Shown here piece by piece: positions 4,096 to 42,758 of a DNA stretch of 48,241 nucleotides. The stretch lies in assembly GCA_018385425.1 (NCBI GenBank), contig JAHBAA010000034.1:1-48241 (forward strand). The letters are read 5' to 3'. Below the pieces are notes generated by a model, which was given only the letters and a program-made list of their open reading frames with translations, did not search any database and was not told the DNA's origin. The translations under genes were made by a program, and so were the position numbers. The DNA is from Acetatifactor sp. GTDB taxonomy: Bacteria; Bacillota; Clostridia; Lachnospirales; Lachnospiraceae. Positions within the stretch are counted from its first letter, which is position 1; each line of letters begins with the position of its first letter.

Positions 4096-4581
4096 ATGAA
4101 CGCAAAGGGTATTGTATTTAAATATGGAGACAACGTGGATACGGACGTTATCATCCCCGCAAGATATCTGAATTCATCCGATCCCGCAGAGCTCGCTGCA
4201 CATTGTATGGAAGATATCGACCGAGACTTTGTGAAGAAAGTGAAGAAGGGTGACATTATTGTTGCTGACAAGAACTTCGGCTGCGGTTCTTCCAGAGAGC
4301 ATGCACCTATCGCCATCAAGGCAGCCGGTGTCAGCTGCGTGATTGCGGAGACCTTTGCAAGAATTTTCTACCGCAACGCGATCAATATCGGACTTCCTAT
4401 TATTGAATGCCCTGAGGCCAGCAGGGGAATTGAGGCAGGAGATGAGGTGGAGATCAACTTTGATACCGGTGTGATCACAAATGTGACGAAGGGAACCTCT
4501 TTCCAGGGCCAGGCTTTCCCGGAGTTTATGCAGAAGATCATTGCTTCTGAGGGTTTGATCAATTATATTAACAATAAATAA
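4096..4581 (+). CDS. leuD: 3-isopropylmalate dehydratase small subunit
   Basis: [35 protein letters not shown]. Confidence 0.95.
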
Positions 4582-37164: not shown

Positions 37165-37752
37165 ATGAGCAGAACAGCAAGCGTTGAACGCAAGACATTT
37201 GAGACAGATATTGCCGTGAGCATCGATCTGGATGGGAAAGGAACCTCCGAGATCGATACCGGCATCGGTTTCTTCGACCATATGCTGCAGGGCTTCGCAA
37301 AGCATGGTTTCTTCGACCTGACCTGTAGGGTGAAGGGAGACCTGCAGGTGGACGGGCATCACACCGTGGAGGATGCCGGTATTGTGTTGGGGCAGGCCAT
37401 TGCACAGGCGGTGGGTGACAAGAAGGGAATCCGAAGATTCGGTTATTTTATCCTGCCCATGGACGATGCGTTGGCGCTCTGCGCTGTGGATCTGTGCGGC
37501 AGACCGTATCTGAATTTTGAATGCAGCTTCCCCGTGGAACGGGTGGGAGAGCTGGAGACGGAGCTGGTGCGGGAGTTTTTCTACGCATTGTCCTACAGTG
37601 CCGGGATGAATCTTCATATCAAGATGCTCTCCGGCATCAATGCACATCACATGATCGAGGCCATGTTTAAGGCCTTTGCGAAAGCACTGGATCAGGCTGT
37701 CTCCTTTGATCCCCGCATCAGTGATGTATTAAGTACGAAAGGAAGTTTGTAA
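37165..37752 (+). CDS. hisB: imidazoleglycerol-phosphate dehydratase
   Basis: GTGFFDHML-like [54 protein letters not shown]. Confidence 0.96.
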
Positions 37753-39056
37753 TGAGCGATCAACAGGTTGTGAAAAAATTTGTCCCCTGTATCTATCTGC
37801 ATCAGGGTAAAGCCGTAGACGGATTGCGGCATGAGAGGATCGTCGAGGAGGATCCGCTGACGCTTGTACAGCGCTACAACGAGTGCGGTGCCGATGAACT
37901 GATCGTGTTTGACCTGTCCCGTGGGGATGCGGAGCATGAGGCTGCTCTGGATGTGTTGAAGGAGATCTGCGCTTTGGCAGAAATGGACGTCTTCGGCGCA
38001 GGGAATATCAAGCGCATGGAGGATGTGAAGAAGCTTCTCTATGCCGGCTGCAGCCGTGCGGTATTGAATTATGATCCGGAAGGAAATGTAGGGATCACGG
38101 AAGAAGTGTCCCTGAAATTCGGCAAGGAGAAGATCATGGCTTCCGTCACGGATCCCGGGTCAGTGGACGACAACCGGGAGCTGGCAGAGAAATATCTGAG
38201 CGGCCTGATCCTGATGGATGAAGCAAAAGCAGGGCAGTTGGGTTCTGTGCAGACCGCTCTTCCCTGGTATCTGAATCTGGAACAGTCTTCGGAGCTTCAG
38301 ATGATGGATACTTTGGCGGATACGGATCGCATTTGCGGCGTCACCGGTAATTTTGTGAATGACCATTACGCAAAGATCTATGAGTGGAAAAAGGTCCTTC
38401 TCTCAAGAGGAGTCAGTGTGCAGACGCTGGAGGCGGCTCTGAAATGGTCGGAGCTAAAGAAAAATTCCGACGGCATGGTGCCTGTGATCGTGCAGGACTA
38501 CAGAACCTCTGAGGTGCTGATGCTTGCCTATATGAATGAGGAGTCCTATGAGAAGACCCTGCTCACCGGCAAGATGACCTACTACAGCAGAAGCCGACAG
38601 GAGCTTTGGCTGAAGGGTGAGACAAGCGGACATTATCAATATGTGAAGAGCCTGACCGCCGATTGTGACAAGGATACGATCCTTGCGAAGGTTTCCCAGG
38701 TAGGGGCTGCCTGCCATACCGGTGCCAGGAGCTGTTTCTTCCGGGAGATCGCCCATAAGGAGTATGAACAGGTCGACAATCCTCTCTCCGTGTTTACAGA
38801 TGTGTTCAATGTGATAAAAGACCGTAAGCTCCATCCCAAGGAAGGATCCTACACCAATTATCTCTTTGATAAGGGAATTGACAAGATCCTAAAGAAGCTT
38901 GGCGAGGAGGCCACCGAGATCGTGATCGCGGCCAAGAATCCAAACCCCAACGAGATCAAGTATGAGATCAGCGATTTCCTGTATCATATGATGGTGCTGA
39001 TGGCAGAGAAAAACATATCCTGGGAGGATATTATGACGGAGCTGGCCAATCGCTGA
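37752..39056 (+). CDS. hisIE: HisA/HisF-like barrel fused to HisI-HisE (PRA-cyclohydrolase / PRA-pyrophosphatase)
   Basis: N-term [14 protein letters not shown]...[16 protein letters not shown]; His[51 protein letters not shown]; His[31 protein letters not shown]. Confidence 0.92.
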
Positions 39057-39071
39057 CGCTCCGTATTACAC

Positions 39072-39107
39072 AAAAAATCCTATCGATTTCGGTCGATAGG
39101 ATTTTTT
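39072..39107. terminator. his operon terminator
   Basis: 15-bp perfect stem AAAAAATCCTATCGA/TCGATAGGATTTTTT, loop TTTCGG. Confidence 0.9.
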
Positions 39108-39231
39108 AGGCACACTTCATTATCAATGATAACAAATTTCAAAAGAAAAGTCTAGTATTTTTTTTATCTTTCGGTATACTGGAGTATGTAACTTAAGAGA
39201 AATATACGAGAGAAGGGAGTGTGACAGACCT

Positions 39232-42200
39232 ATGACCGGAACAGACAGAGTATCGGAGCAGGCATATTTAAAGGATACGCTTCGTATTGTGGATGAGCAT
39301 CTGGAAAAGTACAACGCAGAGATCGCCAGAACCCAGGAGAGCATCGATGAAATGCTGGTGCACTATCATGACAATGATGTGGAGCTATGGACGATCCTGA
39401 ACAACACCATTACCATCAATGAACACATGAAGCGTTCCTATGCACATTGTCTGAAGGCGAAGAAAAAGCCCTATTTTGGCAGGATCATTTACAGGGACGA
39501 GGAGATGAACAAGGAGGTTTCTCTCTACATCGGCAGAGGGGATCTCTCCGTGGATCATACCCATCTTCAGGTGATCGACTGGCGCGCACCTGTGGCGACA
39601 GCCTATTATGAAAACGGTTTGGGAAAGTGCTGCTATATCGCTCCCGGCGGAAAGGAAATTCCCATTGATCTGTCTCTGAAGCGCACCTTTGAGATAGAGG
39701 AGGGAGTTCTGAAGGATTACTTTGATACGGAGGTAGTATCCAATGATGAGCTTCTGACCAAGTATCTCTCCAGAAATAAAGAGGCGGTTCTGGGAGAGAT
39801 CGTTGCCACGATCCAGAAGGAACAGAATGAGATCATTCGAAAAACACCTCTTCGAAACACGCTGGTACAAGGCGTAGCCGGCTCCGGCAAGACTACCGTG
39901 GCAATGCATCGTATCTCCTATATTCTCTATAATTATGCGGAGCGTTTTCGCCCGGAGGATTTCTACATCGTGGGAAGCAATCAGATTCTCCTGAATTATA
40001 TCACAGGAGTCTTGCCGGATCTGGATGTATCCGGGGTCCGTCAGATGACCATGGAGCAGTTGTTCCTTCGCCTGCTTTATGAGGATGCTCCGCTGGTGGA
40101 GGGGAAGCTCAAACCCTTCCGAAATGCTTCCGACAGCATTAAGGGTACTACAAAGTGGTTCCGGGATCTGGTGCGATTCATTCGCAGACTGGAGAATGAC
40201 TCTATCAGTCAAGAAGATGTTCTGCTGTATCCCAGACAGTTTGTGGAAGGTTTTGAGAACGGTGTGACCGGAATATACGATCGTCTGGAGGAGGATCGAA
40301 AAAACGGCAAAGCACCGGAGACCATCGTTCTGGTGGAAGGCAGTGCGGTGGAACGCTATGTGTCACAGAACCCGAATATCTCCATCCAGAGCAAGATCGA
40401 TATGCTGAATGAAAGGCTGAAGATCAAAGTGGAGGAAGAGTTCCTGACCAGAGGACTTCGCTACTCTGAGGCAGAGCGAAAAGCCATTGTGAAGGCCTAC
40501 CGCGGCTATTACGGGCCCCGGGAATGGAAACGATCGATTCTGGAGCTCTATGGACAATTCCTGGAGGAGCAAAGGGAACGGGGCGTTGTGGTGTCTGAAC
40601 AAGACGGAGCATACGATGTATACGATCTGGCGGCGCTGGCGCTGTTGTACAAGCTGGTAAAAGAGACCGAGGTGATCTCTGAGGCACACCATATCGTCAT
40701 CGATGAGGCGCAGGATTTCGGCATGATGGTCTATCGGGTGTTGGATGCCTGCATCAAGGATTGTACTTATACTGTGATGGGAGACGTATCCCAGAACATT
40801 CATTTCGGATACGGTCTTTCCGATTGGGAGGAACTCCGCAAGCTTCTGATCCGAACAAGCTTTGATTCCTTCTGTACGCTGCGCAAGAGCTATCGAAACA
40901 CCATTGAGATCTCAGAGTTTGCCACCAATATTCTGCGTCACGGTAGCTTCCCGATCTATCCGGTGGAACCCATCATCCGACATGGCAAACCGGTCCGACT
41001 GGAACGGACCAAGGATCTGGTGGTGCGTACGGCACAGACTTGTGTGGAGTGGCAGAAGCGTGATCTGAAGACGATCGCGGTCATCTGCCGTGACCGGGAG
41101 ACGGCATCGGATTTTGGTGCTGCACTGTCTGAGCTGATTCCGATTTTAGATACGGATCCGGAGAAGCTGACCTTTGGAAACGGTATCATGGTACTCCCGG
41201 TGGAATACACGAAGGGACTGGAGTTTGATGCATGTATCCTTCTGGATCCCTCGGTCAAAAACTATCCCAAGGACGACGGCCATGCAAAATTGTTGTATGT
41301 GGCAGCCACCAGAGCACTCCATGAACTCTGTGTGTTCTATTCGAACGATCTGACCGGACTGATCGCCGATCCTCTTCCAAAGGAGTCTGCGAACTTCACG
41401 CTTCCTCCGGAGCCGAAGGAGGAGACAAAAAGTACCGTGAGCCCCGCGACGATATCGGCAACGGAGAACAGGGCACAGGCTTTACGGCCGAAGGCGGTGG
41501 CACGTACCCCGGTACGGAAGGCGGCGGAACCAAAGAGTATCTTCCAGCCTAAGATCGTTGCTCCCGACAGTTATCAGGCCCCGGTGAAAAACACCGTTCG
41601 AAAGACACCCGGACAATTCGGAGATCTTCCGGATACCGCACTGATCAAGCCGATGGGACATGCCAGAAGGAATTTTGCGGTTCGATGGGTGACCAAGGAG
41701 CGGGAGGGGATCAACCTACAGAGTCAGGCGGGCAATACCTTCATCCTCCCCATTACAGATCAGATCTTTCGCATCGTTCATGGGGATGGGGTACAAAAAG
41801 TGCCGGAGTCCCATCCGCTGATCCGTGTGGGTAAGTCGTCCTCCGGTTTCTCCTGCAGAGAGAACAGCAGAACCTTCGAGCTTACCACGAAGAGTGCAAG
41901 GGTTGTAGTGGAGAAGCAGTCGGGAACCGTCAGCTTCTGCGACATGGCGGGCAATCTTCTGTTGGGAGAGCAGGGACCGGAACCTCATGTGAAGGACCGC
42001 ACACAGCACAGGTGGTATCTGAGCCTGACGAAAAAGGAGAGGCTCACCGCCATGCGGCCCGGATCGGAGCTGGCACCAATCTCTCTCAGGGGCTCCTCAA
42101 AGTATGTCTCCGACAGTTCAAACCGGGAGATCCTGCCCTTTTTGTTTTCTGACAGAGGGTATGCAATCGTTCCCGCAACCACGAAGGATGTGTTCTTCTG

Positions 42201-42312
42201 TGATATTCCGGCCTACGGTACCTATTTGTCGCTTTCCGATGATTCCTTTGATGTCTACGTCATCCTCGGAAAAGGGCTGCCCCAGGGATATACTTATCTG
42301 ACCGGCCTGTAG
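39232..42312 (+). CDS. HelD-like UvrD/Rep superfamily 1 helicase with extra C-terminal GH31-N-like beta domain
   Basis: LVQGVAGSGKTTVAMHRISYILYNY Walker A; HIVIDEAQDFGMMVY Walker B; Pro/Ala/Lys linker; C-terminal ~215 aa ending ...FDVYVILGKGLPQGYTYLTGL. Confidence 0.88.
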   Translation: MTGTDRVSEQAYLKDTLRIVDEHLEKYNAEIARTQESIDEMLVHYHDNDVELWTILNNTITINEHMKRSYAHCLKAKKKPYFGRIIYRDEEMNKEVSLYIGRGDLSVDHTHLQVIDWRAPVATAYYENGLGKCCYIAPGGKEIPIDLSLKRTFEIEEGVLKDYFDTEVVSNDELLTKYLSRNKEAVLGEIVATIQKEQNEIIRKTPLRNTLVQGVAGSGKTTVAMHRISYILYNYAERFRPEDFYIVGSNQILLNYITGVLPDLDVSGVRQMTMEQLFLRLLYEDAPLVEGKLKPFRNASDSIKGTTKWFRDLVRFIRRLENDSISQEDVLLYPRQFVEGFENGVTGIYDRLEEDRKNGKAPETIVLVEGSAVERYVSQNPNISIQSKIDMLNERLKIKVEEEFLTRGLRYSEAERKAIVKAYRGYYGPREWKRSILELYGQFLEEQRERGVVVSEQDGAYDVYDLAALALLYKLVKETEVISEAHHIVIDEAQDFGMMVYRVLDACIKDCTYTVMGDVSQNIHFGYGLSDWEELRKLLIRTSFDSFCTLRKSYRNTIEISEFATNILRHGSFPIYPVEPIIRHGKPVRLERTKDLVVRTAQTCVEWQKRDLKTIAVICRDRETASDFGAALSELIPILDTDPEKLTFGNGIMVLPVEYTKGLEFDACILLDPSVKNYPKDDGHAKLLYVAATRALHELCVFYSNDLTGLIADPLPKESANFTLPPEPKEETKSTVSPATISATENRAQALRPKAVARTPVRKAAEPKSIFQPKIVAPDSYQAPVKNTVRKTPGQFGDLPDTALIKPMGHARRNFAVRWVTKEREGINLQSQAGNTFILPITDQIFRIVHGDGVQKVPESHPLIRVGKSSSGFSCRENSRTFELTTKSARVVVEKQSGTVSFCDMAGNLLLGEQGPEPHVKDRTQHRWYLSLTKKERLTAMRPGSELAPISLRGSSKYVSDSSNREILPFLFSDRGYAIVPATTKDVFFCDIPAYGTYLSLSDDSFDVYVILGKGLPQGYTYLTGL

Positions 42313-42638
42313 TAGATGTTTTCCTGCAGCCAGCTCTTCATGGATGCGGAGTAATCAGCCGAGAGAAGTTCAAAGATCTCATTTGAACCGATCTCGGCGA
42401 TTTTGATTTTGCCGGTGTCGAGGGTGATCACTGCAAGTACAGCGGCGATGGAGAGAATCGTTCGATACAGAAAGGTACTGTGAGTCGATGCCTGCACGGA
42501 TGCCTCCTCCTCAGAGGCTGTGCTTTTCATCCGGCACATCGCGTTCAGCTGATACCGGTCTCTTTGCTGGCTGGCACGCAGACTCTCGATCTGTCTTTCC
42601 CGTGTGCCGGCAGAAACAGTTTGTGTGATATTGGACAT
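42294..42638 (-). CDS. hypothetical small membrane protein (114 aa)
   Basis: MSNITQTVSAGTRERQIESLRASQQRDRYQL...TM FLYRTILSIAAVLAVITL; tail-to-tail 19-bp overlap with HelD-like gene. Confidence 0.6.
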   Translation of the reverse strand: MSNITQTVSAGTRERQIESLRASQQRDRYQLNAMCRMKSTASEEEASVQASTHSTFLYRTILSIAAVLAVITLDTGKIKIAEIGSNEIFELLSADYSASMKSWLQENIYYRPVR

Positions 42639-42689
42639 GTTCAAAACCTTTTTACGTAGGAAGGATGTACTACAGAATATGCTGTAAGG

Positions 42690-42718
42690 TTTACAACAAT
42701 GTTTCTTTTTGGTACAAT
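42690..42718 (+). promoter_or_regulatory. promoter TTTACA-N17-TACAAT upstream of radical SAM gene
   Basis: -35 at 42690-42695, -10 at 42713-42718. Confidence 0.6.
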
Positions 42719-42758
42719 AAAGTATGACATCTATTTTTAAGCAGAGAAAGGTTTTCAA

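What the first reader, a model, noticed from the sequence alone, without database searches (positions are those of the whole stretch)
41660..42312. HelD-like helicase fused to a GH31-N-terminal-like beta-sandwich without the catalytic barrel
After the helicase core (Walker A at GVAGSGKTT, end near 41390) and a Pro/Ala/Lys-rich linker, the same ORF continues with ~215 aa reading NFAVRWVTKEREGINLQSQAGNTFILPITDQIFRIVHGDG...TFELTTKSARVVVEKQSGTVSFCDMAGNLLLGE...SSKYVSDSSNREILPFLFSDRGYAIVPATTKDVFFCDIPAYGTYLSLSDDSFDVYVILGKGLPQGYTYLTGL*. This resembles the N-terminal galactose-mutarotase-like domain of GH31 glycosidases ('f.l.i.d.ilRv', 'l.T..l.v.v.k..G.i.f.d..G..L..E', 'PF..SdrGYgi', 'dvyvi.G....Y..LTG') and stops where the catalytic barrel would start. 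A carbohydrate-enzyme accessory fold on an RNA-polymerase-recycling/SF1 helicase would be unexpected and could sense a sugar or serve as a protein-interaction module.
Basis: partly seen in the sequence, partly recalled or inferred. Interest (0 to 1): 0.72.

Follow-up and report, generated by a model that had tools for sequence, protein, structure and literature searches.

The report
RNA polymerase recycler wearing sugar-enzyme domain
A family of bacteria has permanently attached the non-catalytic front domain of a sugar-cutting enzyme to the tail of HelD, a motor that frees stuck RNA polymerase, and evolution has kept and remodelled that domain, which probably now serves as a docking module and not as a sugar tool.

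Summary
Window 39232-42312 (+) is one intact 1026-aa gene: a HelD-type SF1 motor (residues 1-719, motifs intact), a low-constraint linker (about 720-794) and a C-terminal domain (804-1026). A profile of 26 such tails matches GH31 N-domains (significant PDB hits all GH31, best E 3e-15; Pfam Gal_mutarotas_2 in 15 of 26), and the AlphaFold2 model of the window tail (pLDDT 86) retrieves GH31 enzymes. It is not an assembly error: I read 36 other full-length fused genes, and a survey found the tail in 39 of 396 genomes of one family (records include Lachnospiraceae), with none seen outside it. The data fit one origin (tails form one group, 100/99). The tail is under purifying selection (dN/dS 0.08-0.27) while the linker is nearly free (0.5-1.0). 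Motifs invariant in the parent GH31s (GLGQ, HQAN, a hairpin) are lost, new ones are fixed (P-x-G-H, a Cys), and mean net charge shifts from -11 to +5. Best reading: an exapted, tethered docking module on an RNA-polymerase recycling factor, analogous to the PcrA/UvrD Tudor tail. Sugar sensing is not supported. The partner is unknown.

The parts
39232..42312 (+). helD-like gene with GH31-N tail, 1026 aa
   Evidence: open frame; 36 full-length fused relatives read
39076..39103 (+). stem-loop followed by T run (AATCCTATCGA-TTTCGG-TCGATAGGATT), likely terminator of the his operon upstream, which would make the gene monocistronic
   Evidence: read by eye; not listed by the consensus scan
39213..39219 (+). 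AAGGGAG, probable ribosome-binding site 12 nt before the ATG
   Evidence: read by eye
39247..39465 (+). residues 6-78: two-helix hairpin with acidic tip (HYHDNDVE), at the position of the HelD secondary-channel arm
   Evidence: AlphaFold2 helices 6-43 and 50-78 at modest confidence; tip conserved in A3; equivalence to the B. subtilis arm is inferred
39232..41388 (+). HelD motor region, residues 1-719
   Evidence: NCBIfam HelD_BACSU E 7.5e-94, 315 bits, under the cut-off of 419; B. subtilis HelD 6wvk E 6.4e-66
39871..39897 (+). Walker A GVAGSGKTT
   Evidence: G[VA]AGSGKTT in the 25 sequences shown
40702..40716 (+). Walker B / motif II DEAQD
   Evidence: invariant in the 25 sequences shown
41299..41316 (+). 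motif VI VAATRA
41389..41613 (+). Ala/Lys/Glu/Pro-rich linker, residues 720-794; variable length, low constraint
   Evidence: dN/dS 0.5-1.0; pLDDT below 50; length 10-174, median 104
41617..41670 (+). tail-specific entry motif FGDLPDTALIKPMGHARR (family: FG[DTS]xPxxxxLRPxGHxRID)
   Evidence: G-H in 93-95% of tails, absent from the aligned GH31s
41641..42309 (+). GH31 N-terminal-type beta-sandwich, residues 804-1026
42049..42060 (+). residues 940-943 (AMRP), position of the GLGQ loop of GH31: motif lost
42109..42120 (+). residues 960-963 (SDSS), position of the HQAN loop of GH31: motif lost
42268..42312 (+). domain end ...GKGLPQGYTYLTGL*: stops where the GH31 barrel would begin (LTGKAxMLPxWAxGxxQSQERYE in GH31)

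Best explanation
This is a HelD-type, RNA-polymerase-recycling SF1 motor, probably of the short HelD kind. Once in the ancestry of one bacterial family (records include Lachnospiraceae), it acquired the N-terminal beta-sandwich of a GH31 alpha-xylosidase-like enzyme at its C-terminus. Freed of its catalytic barrel, the sandwich lost the GLGQ/HQAN motifs and a hairpin, gained a conserved entry motif (P-x-G-H) and a set of basic residues, and hangs on a flexible linker. Most likely mechanism: the motor engages RNA polymerase with its two-helix arm and ATPase core as other HelDs do (inferred). The tethered, positively charged sandwich docks on an acidic partner, either a surface of RNA polymerase or an associated factor, to recruit or hold the motor, much as the Tudor C-terminal domain of PcrA/UvrD does. 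Shown here: the fusion, the domain's ancestry, its conservation and its remodelling. Inferred: RNA polymerase binding by the motor, and docking as the function of the tail.
For: HelD identity; helicase motifs intact in the 25 fused proteins aligned. GH31-N identity. The tail is real and retained: 36 relatives read full length; tail dN/dS 0.075-0.27 against 0.06-0.15 for the motor and 0.5-1.0 for the linker. Single origin: all 40 tails on one side of a 100/99 branch against 15 GH31 N-domains; tailed motors form one group against untailed ones (support only 66); helicase and tail distances correlate, r 0.77, none of 2000 permutations as high. Repurposing: GH31 motifs GLGQ (Q 0%) and HQAN (H 0%, N 0%) lost, hairpin deleted, new conserved residues P-x-G-H, K934, C990 and P993; net charge of shared columns +5.2 in tails against -10.9 in GH31-N, ranges not overlapping. 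Linker at pLDDT below 50, tail folds on its own. Precedents: PcrA's C-terminal Tudor domain on a long disordered linker binds RNAP (PMC8318588); the N-domain of a GH31 enzyme takes part in a protein-protein interface (PMC9061262).
Against: No binding partner is identified. The motor scores below the NCBIfam cut-off for B. subtilis-type HelD. The window's own tail is one of the more divergent (end branch 1.5) and departs at several otherwise conserved positions (R837F, F850H, R919H, G942R), so this copy may be under weaker constraint. Clade-B tails end just after the YYF strand and lack the last helix. The charge shift happened in one lineage, so it is a single event statistically.
Confidence: 0.58

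Rival explanations
1. Sugar or metabolite sensor: the sandwich binds a carbohydrate and tunes RNA polymerase recycling to nutrient state.
For: Ancestry from a carbohydrate enzyme and strong conservation of the fold.
Against: GLGQ and HQAN motifs, invariant in the aligned GH31s, are gone in the tails; the sugar pocket of GH31 lies chiefly in the absent barrel (established knowledge of GH31); no conserved carbohydrate-gene neighbourhood; charge reversal.
Confidence: 0.08
2. Nucleic-acid clamp: the basic tail binds DNA or RNA directly and increases the grip of the motor on stalled complexes.
For: Tail net charge +5 on average, against -11 in GH31-N; new conserved Lys and Arg positions.
Against: Charge is moderate and variable (-1 to +13); the window copy has only about +3; I know of no nucleic-acid-binding domain of this kind.
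Confidence: 0.2
3. Inert fossil of a gene fusion: the domain folds but has no function beyond stability.
For: Domain evolves about 1.5 times faster than the motor; the window copy is divergent.
Against: Retained in every member of the tailed clade that was read, with purifying selection close to that of the motor and new tail-specific conserved residues.
Confidence: 0.08
4. Assembly error or frameshift joining two genes.
For: One relative (L101) has motor and tail in two frames.
Against: 36 other full-length fused frames in other genomes; the L101 case looks like a slip within the linker and is the exception.
Confidence: 0.01

Closest known systems
HelD of Bacillus subtilis (class I; PDB 6wvk, 6zca, 6zfb)
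   Same: Same motor by sequence (E 6.4e-66), with intact ATPase motifs and a two-helix N-terminal arm.
   Different: Ends after the motor (774 aa); no C-terminal sandwich. The study of HelD classes (PMC8655204) lists HelDs of about 670-870 aa in the passages read, and a search of its text for C-terminal or extension found nothing. The delta subunit that helps B. subtilis HelD is not detected in this genome (HARE-HTH).
GH31 glycosidase N-terminal domain (Pfam Gal_mutarotas_2; alpha-xylosidase-like enzymes)
   Same: Same fold and clear homology from the first strand to the helix before the barrel.
   Different: No barrel, no C-terminal domains, GLGQ/HQAN motifs and hairpin lost, new motifs and reversed charge.
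PcrA/UvrD C-terminal Tudor domain
   Same: Small beta domain at the C-terminus of an SF1 motor on a long disordered linker; in PcrA it binds RNA polymerase (PMC8318588).
   Different: Unrelated fold and origin; partner of the GH31-N tail is unknown. This is 'works like', not membership.

Membership tests
HelD (RNA polymerase recycling motor) | Sequence homology over the motor | tested here: met
   NCBIfam HelD_BACSU E 7.5e-94; PDB HelD E 6.4e-66. Below the equivalog cut-off (315 of 419 bits), so a HelD-family member but not shown to be the B. subtilis equivalog.
HelD (RNA polymerase recycling motor) | Intact SF1 ATPase motifs | tested here: met
   GVAGSGKTT, DEAQD, KSYRNT, VAATRA
HelD (RNA polymerase recycling motor) | N-terminal secondary-channel arm | tested here: inconclusive
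   Two long helices with an acidic, conserved tip at residues 6-78, but at modest model confidence and without a direct structural match
HelD (RNA polymerase recycling motor) | Binds and recycles RNA polymerase | not testable with these tools
   needs biochemistry
GH31 N-terminal beta-sandwich domain | Sequence profile match | tested here: met
   for the family; the window sequence alone is under threshold
GH31 N-terminal beta-sandwich domain | Fold | tested here: met
   model pLDDT 85.8; best Foldseek hits are GH31 enzymes, E 2.8e-13
GH31 enzyme | Catalytic TIM barrel | tested here: not met
   the protein ends before the barrel in all tails read; no Glyco_hydro_31_2nd hit
GH31 enzyme | GLGQ / HQAN motifs, invariant in the aligned GH31s | tested here: not met
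   lost in window and relatives
PcrA/UvrD-type tethered RNAP-binding tail (analogy) | C-terminal folded domain on a flexible linker | tested here: met
PcrA/UvrD-type tethered RNAP-binding tail (analogy) | Tail binds RNA polymerase | not testable with these tools
   needs pull-down or structure

The most novel reading that the evidence does not exclude
The glycosidase-derived domain gates RNA polymerase recycling by sensing a carbohydrate or other small metabolite, or by docking on a carbohydrate-metabolism protein, thereby coupling transcription recovery to available sugars in these bacteria.
Probability: 0.1. Interest if true: 0.88.

Novelty: new variant of a known kind. Interest (0 to 1): 0.62.

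Why it matters
HelD proteins clear stalled RNA polymerase and, in B. subtilis and actinobacteria, protect against rifampicin (PMC12802891, PMC10719064). A lineage of bacteria has a permanent extra module on this motor that is not described in the HelD literature I could search, and it derives from a carbohydrate enzyme. It is a clean case of a domain of a digestive enzyme being recruited onto a transcription-machinery factor. It offers a testable handle on how HelD is recruited in bacteria that lack the delta subunit.

Tried and rejected
Single-sequence Pfam and PDB searches with the window tail were nearly blank (the Lipocalin hit at E 0.045 is below cut-off and contradicted by the family profile); a profile of relatives was needed. 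Idea that the tail replaces the delta subunit: the HARE-HTH domain of delta was found in only 1 of 61 genomes, tailed or not, so absence of delta does not track the tail; not supported as a specific link. Idea of a functional operon with sugar genes: neighbours differ between loci; where shared they include his genes upstream or MoxR/DUF58-like genes downstream, the latter named from memory of their sequences. Full-length structure with 7 sequences was poor for the motor (pLDDT 51) and was used only for the N-terminal helices, the low-confidence linker and the independent tail fold. Assembly artefact rejected. Literature searches for such a fusion found none, within an open-access library only.

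Full report
What is there. Window 39232-42312 (+) is a single 1026-aa frame. A stem-loop with a T run separates it from the his genes upstream, and AAGGGAG precedes the ATG (read), so it looks like a gene of its own. Residues 1-719 are a HelD-type motor: NCBIfam HelD_BACSU E 7.5e-94, under its equivalog cut-off, and B. subtilis HelD in the PDB, E 6.4e-66. The ATPase motifs are intact in the 25 fused proteins aligned. The N-terminal two-helix hairpin with a conserved acidic tip sits where HelD carries its secondary-channel arm; that equivalence is inferred.

The tail. Residues 804-1026 alone give no GH31 hit in Pfam and only a weak PDB hit to an alpha-xylosidase (E 0.44). Whole-genome searches found relatives. 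A profile of 26 tails hits GH31 enzymes in the PDB (5jou E 3.1e-15, then 7kmp, 2xvg, 5zn6, 6jr8, 6jr6), and 15 of 26 members hit Pfam PF13802, best 1.4e-8. The AlphaFold2 model of the window tail from seven sequences (pLDDT 85.8, pTM 0.87) has GH31 enzymes as its best Foldseek matches (E 2.8e-13, TM 0.79 over the query). Aligned with real GH31 enzymes, including the 834-aa enzyme of the same genome, the tail runs from the first strand to the helix just before the barrel and stops there.

Not an artefact. Thirty-seven full-length fused frames, the window's included, were read without stops. Two more tails lie at contig ends, with the motor on another contig or cut off (L040, L103). One relative, L101, has motor and tail in two frames, which looks like a slip in the linker. 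In a survey of the family, 39 of 396 genomes carry the tail by my count of the rows, all but two of them in frames of at least 1011 aa; only some of these were read in full. In the order, class and phylum surveys (295, 341 and 399 genomes), hits outside the family lie in frames of 364-818 aa, the size of GH31 enzymes or fragments of them. Among 61 close genomes, those with a tailed HelD and those with the short untailed HelD (680-729 aa) do not overlap in the rows shown, which suggests that the tailed form is the short form with a tail.

History. In a tree of 40 tails and 15 GH31 N-domains the tails form one side of a branch with 100/99 support. In the motor tree the tailed proteins form one group, with support of only 66. 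Motor and tail distances correlate (r 0.77; 0 of 2000 permutations as high; one of the 38 proteins is a contig-end fragment). One fusion followed by joint descent is the simplest reading.

Selection. In the closest pair (L037, L038) dN/dS is 0.10 in the motor, 0.54 in the linker and 0.075 in the tail. In the other pairs with usable dS the tail is at 0.12-0.27 and the linker at 0.5-1.0; dS is near saturation in most of these pairs, so the ratios are rough. The tail is thus a maintained domain and the linker a loose tether; the model has pLDDT below 50 there, and linker lengths run from 10 to 174 residues.

Remodelling. Residues that the GH31 sandwich conserves are partly kept (for example R847, E913, Y977, G996, D1007). 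The GLGQ and HQAN motifs, invariant or nearly so in the 15 GH31s, are lost in the tails (Q 0%, H 0%, N 0%), and a hairpin of about 35 residues is deleted. New residues are conserved in tails and absent from the GH31s: G809-H810, K934, C990, P993 (percentages; the window keeps all of these). Net charge over 203 shared columns is +5.2 (range -1 to 13) in tails and -10.9 (range -17 to -5) in the GH31 domains. Because the tails share one origin, this counts as one event.

Mechanism. The most likely function is a tethered docking module on a HelD motor. The parallel is PcrA, whose C-terminal Tudor domain on a long disordered linker binds RNA polymerase (PMC8318588). GH31 N-domains can make protein interfaces: the N-domain of LlGH31_u1 helps build its hexamer (PMC9061262). 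Sugar sensing is unlikely, because the conserved loops are lost, the barrel that makes most of the sugar pocket is missing, and the neighbourhood shows no link to sugar genes. Direct nucleic-acid binding by a basic face remains open. What is shown is the fusion, its ancestry, its maintenance and its remodelling; what the tail binds is not shown.

Comparison with the known. As a motor it belongs to the HelD family by sequence. As a domain the tail belongs to the GH31 N-terminal family by sequence and fold. It is not a GH31 enzyme. The study of HelD classes (PMC8655204) gives lengths of about 670-870 aa in the passages read, and its text has no C-terminal or extension entries. I found no paper describing this fusion. 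I therefore rate it a new variant of a known kind.

Caveats. The window's own tail is among the more divergent (end branch 1.5) and has changed at some otherwise conserved positions.

Noticed in passing
window 37752-39056 (+): 434-aa HisIE protein (PRA-CH and PRA-PH) with an N-terminal HisA/HisF-type barrel piece that matches only about half of the Pfam profile (PF00977 3-128 of 228): another enzyme carrying a partial barrel domain, directly upstream.
   Followed up: partly
window 42294-42758 (-): 154-aa frame convergent with the helD-like gene, overlapping its 3' end by 19 bases, with no Pfam hit; may be a small membrane protein or spurious.
   Followed up: no
L101 (G201:C1) around 4418-4528: Motor and tail of the fused gene lie in two frames overlapping inside the linker; likely a sequencing or assembly slip, but a recoding or split form was not excluded.
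   Followed up: partly
own genome, G000:C67:1556-2173 (-): The same genome carries a second, canonical-length HelD (744-aa frame, 39% identical in the matched part), so the tailed HelD is one of two paralogues.
   Followed up: no
L098-L100 (G682, G590, G744; family f30, genus g441): GH31 enzymes from another family of the class match the tail profile better (199 and 181 bits for L098 and L099) than the window genome's own GH31 (133 bits): candidates for kin of the donor lineage.
   Followed up: partly
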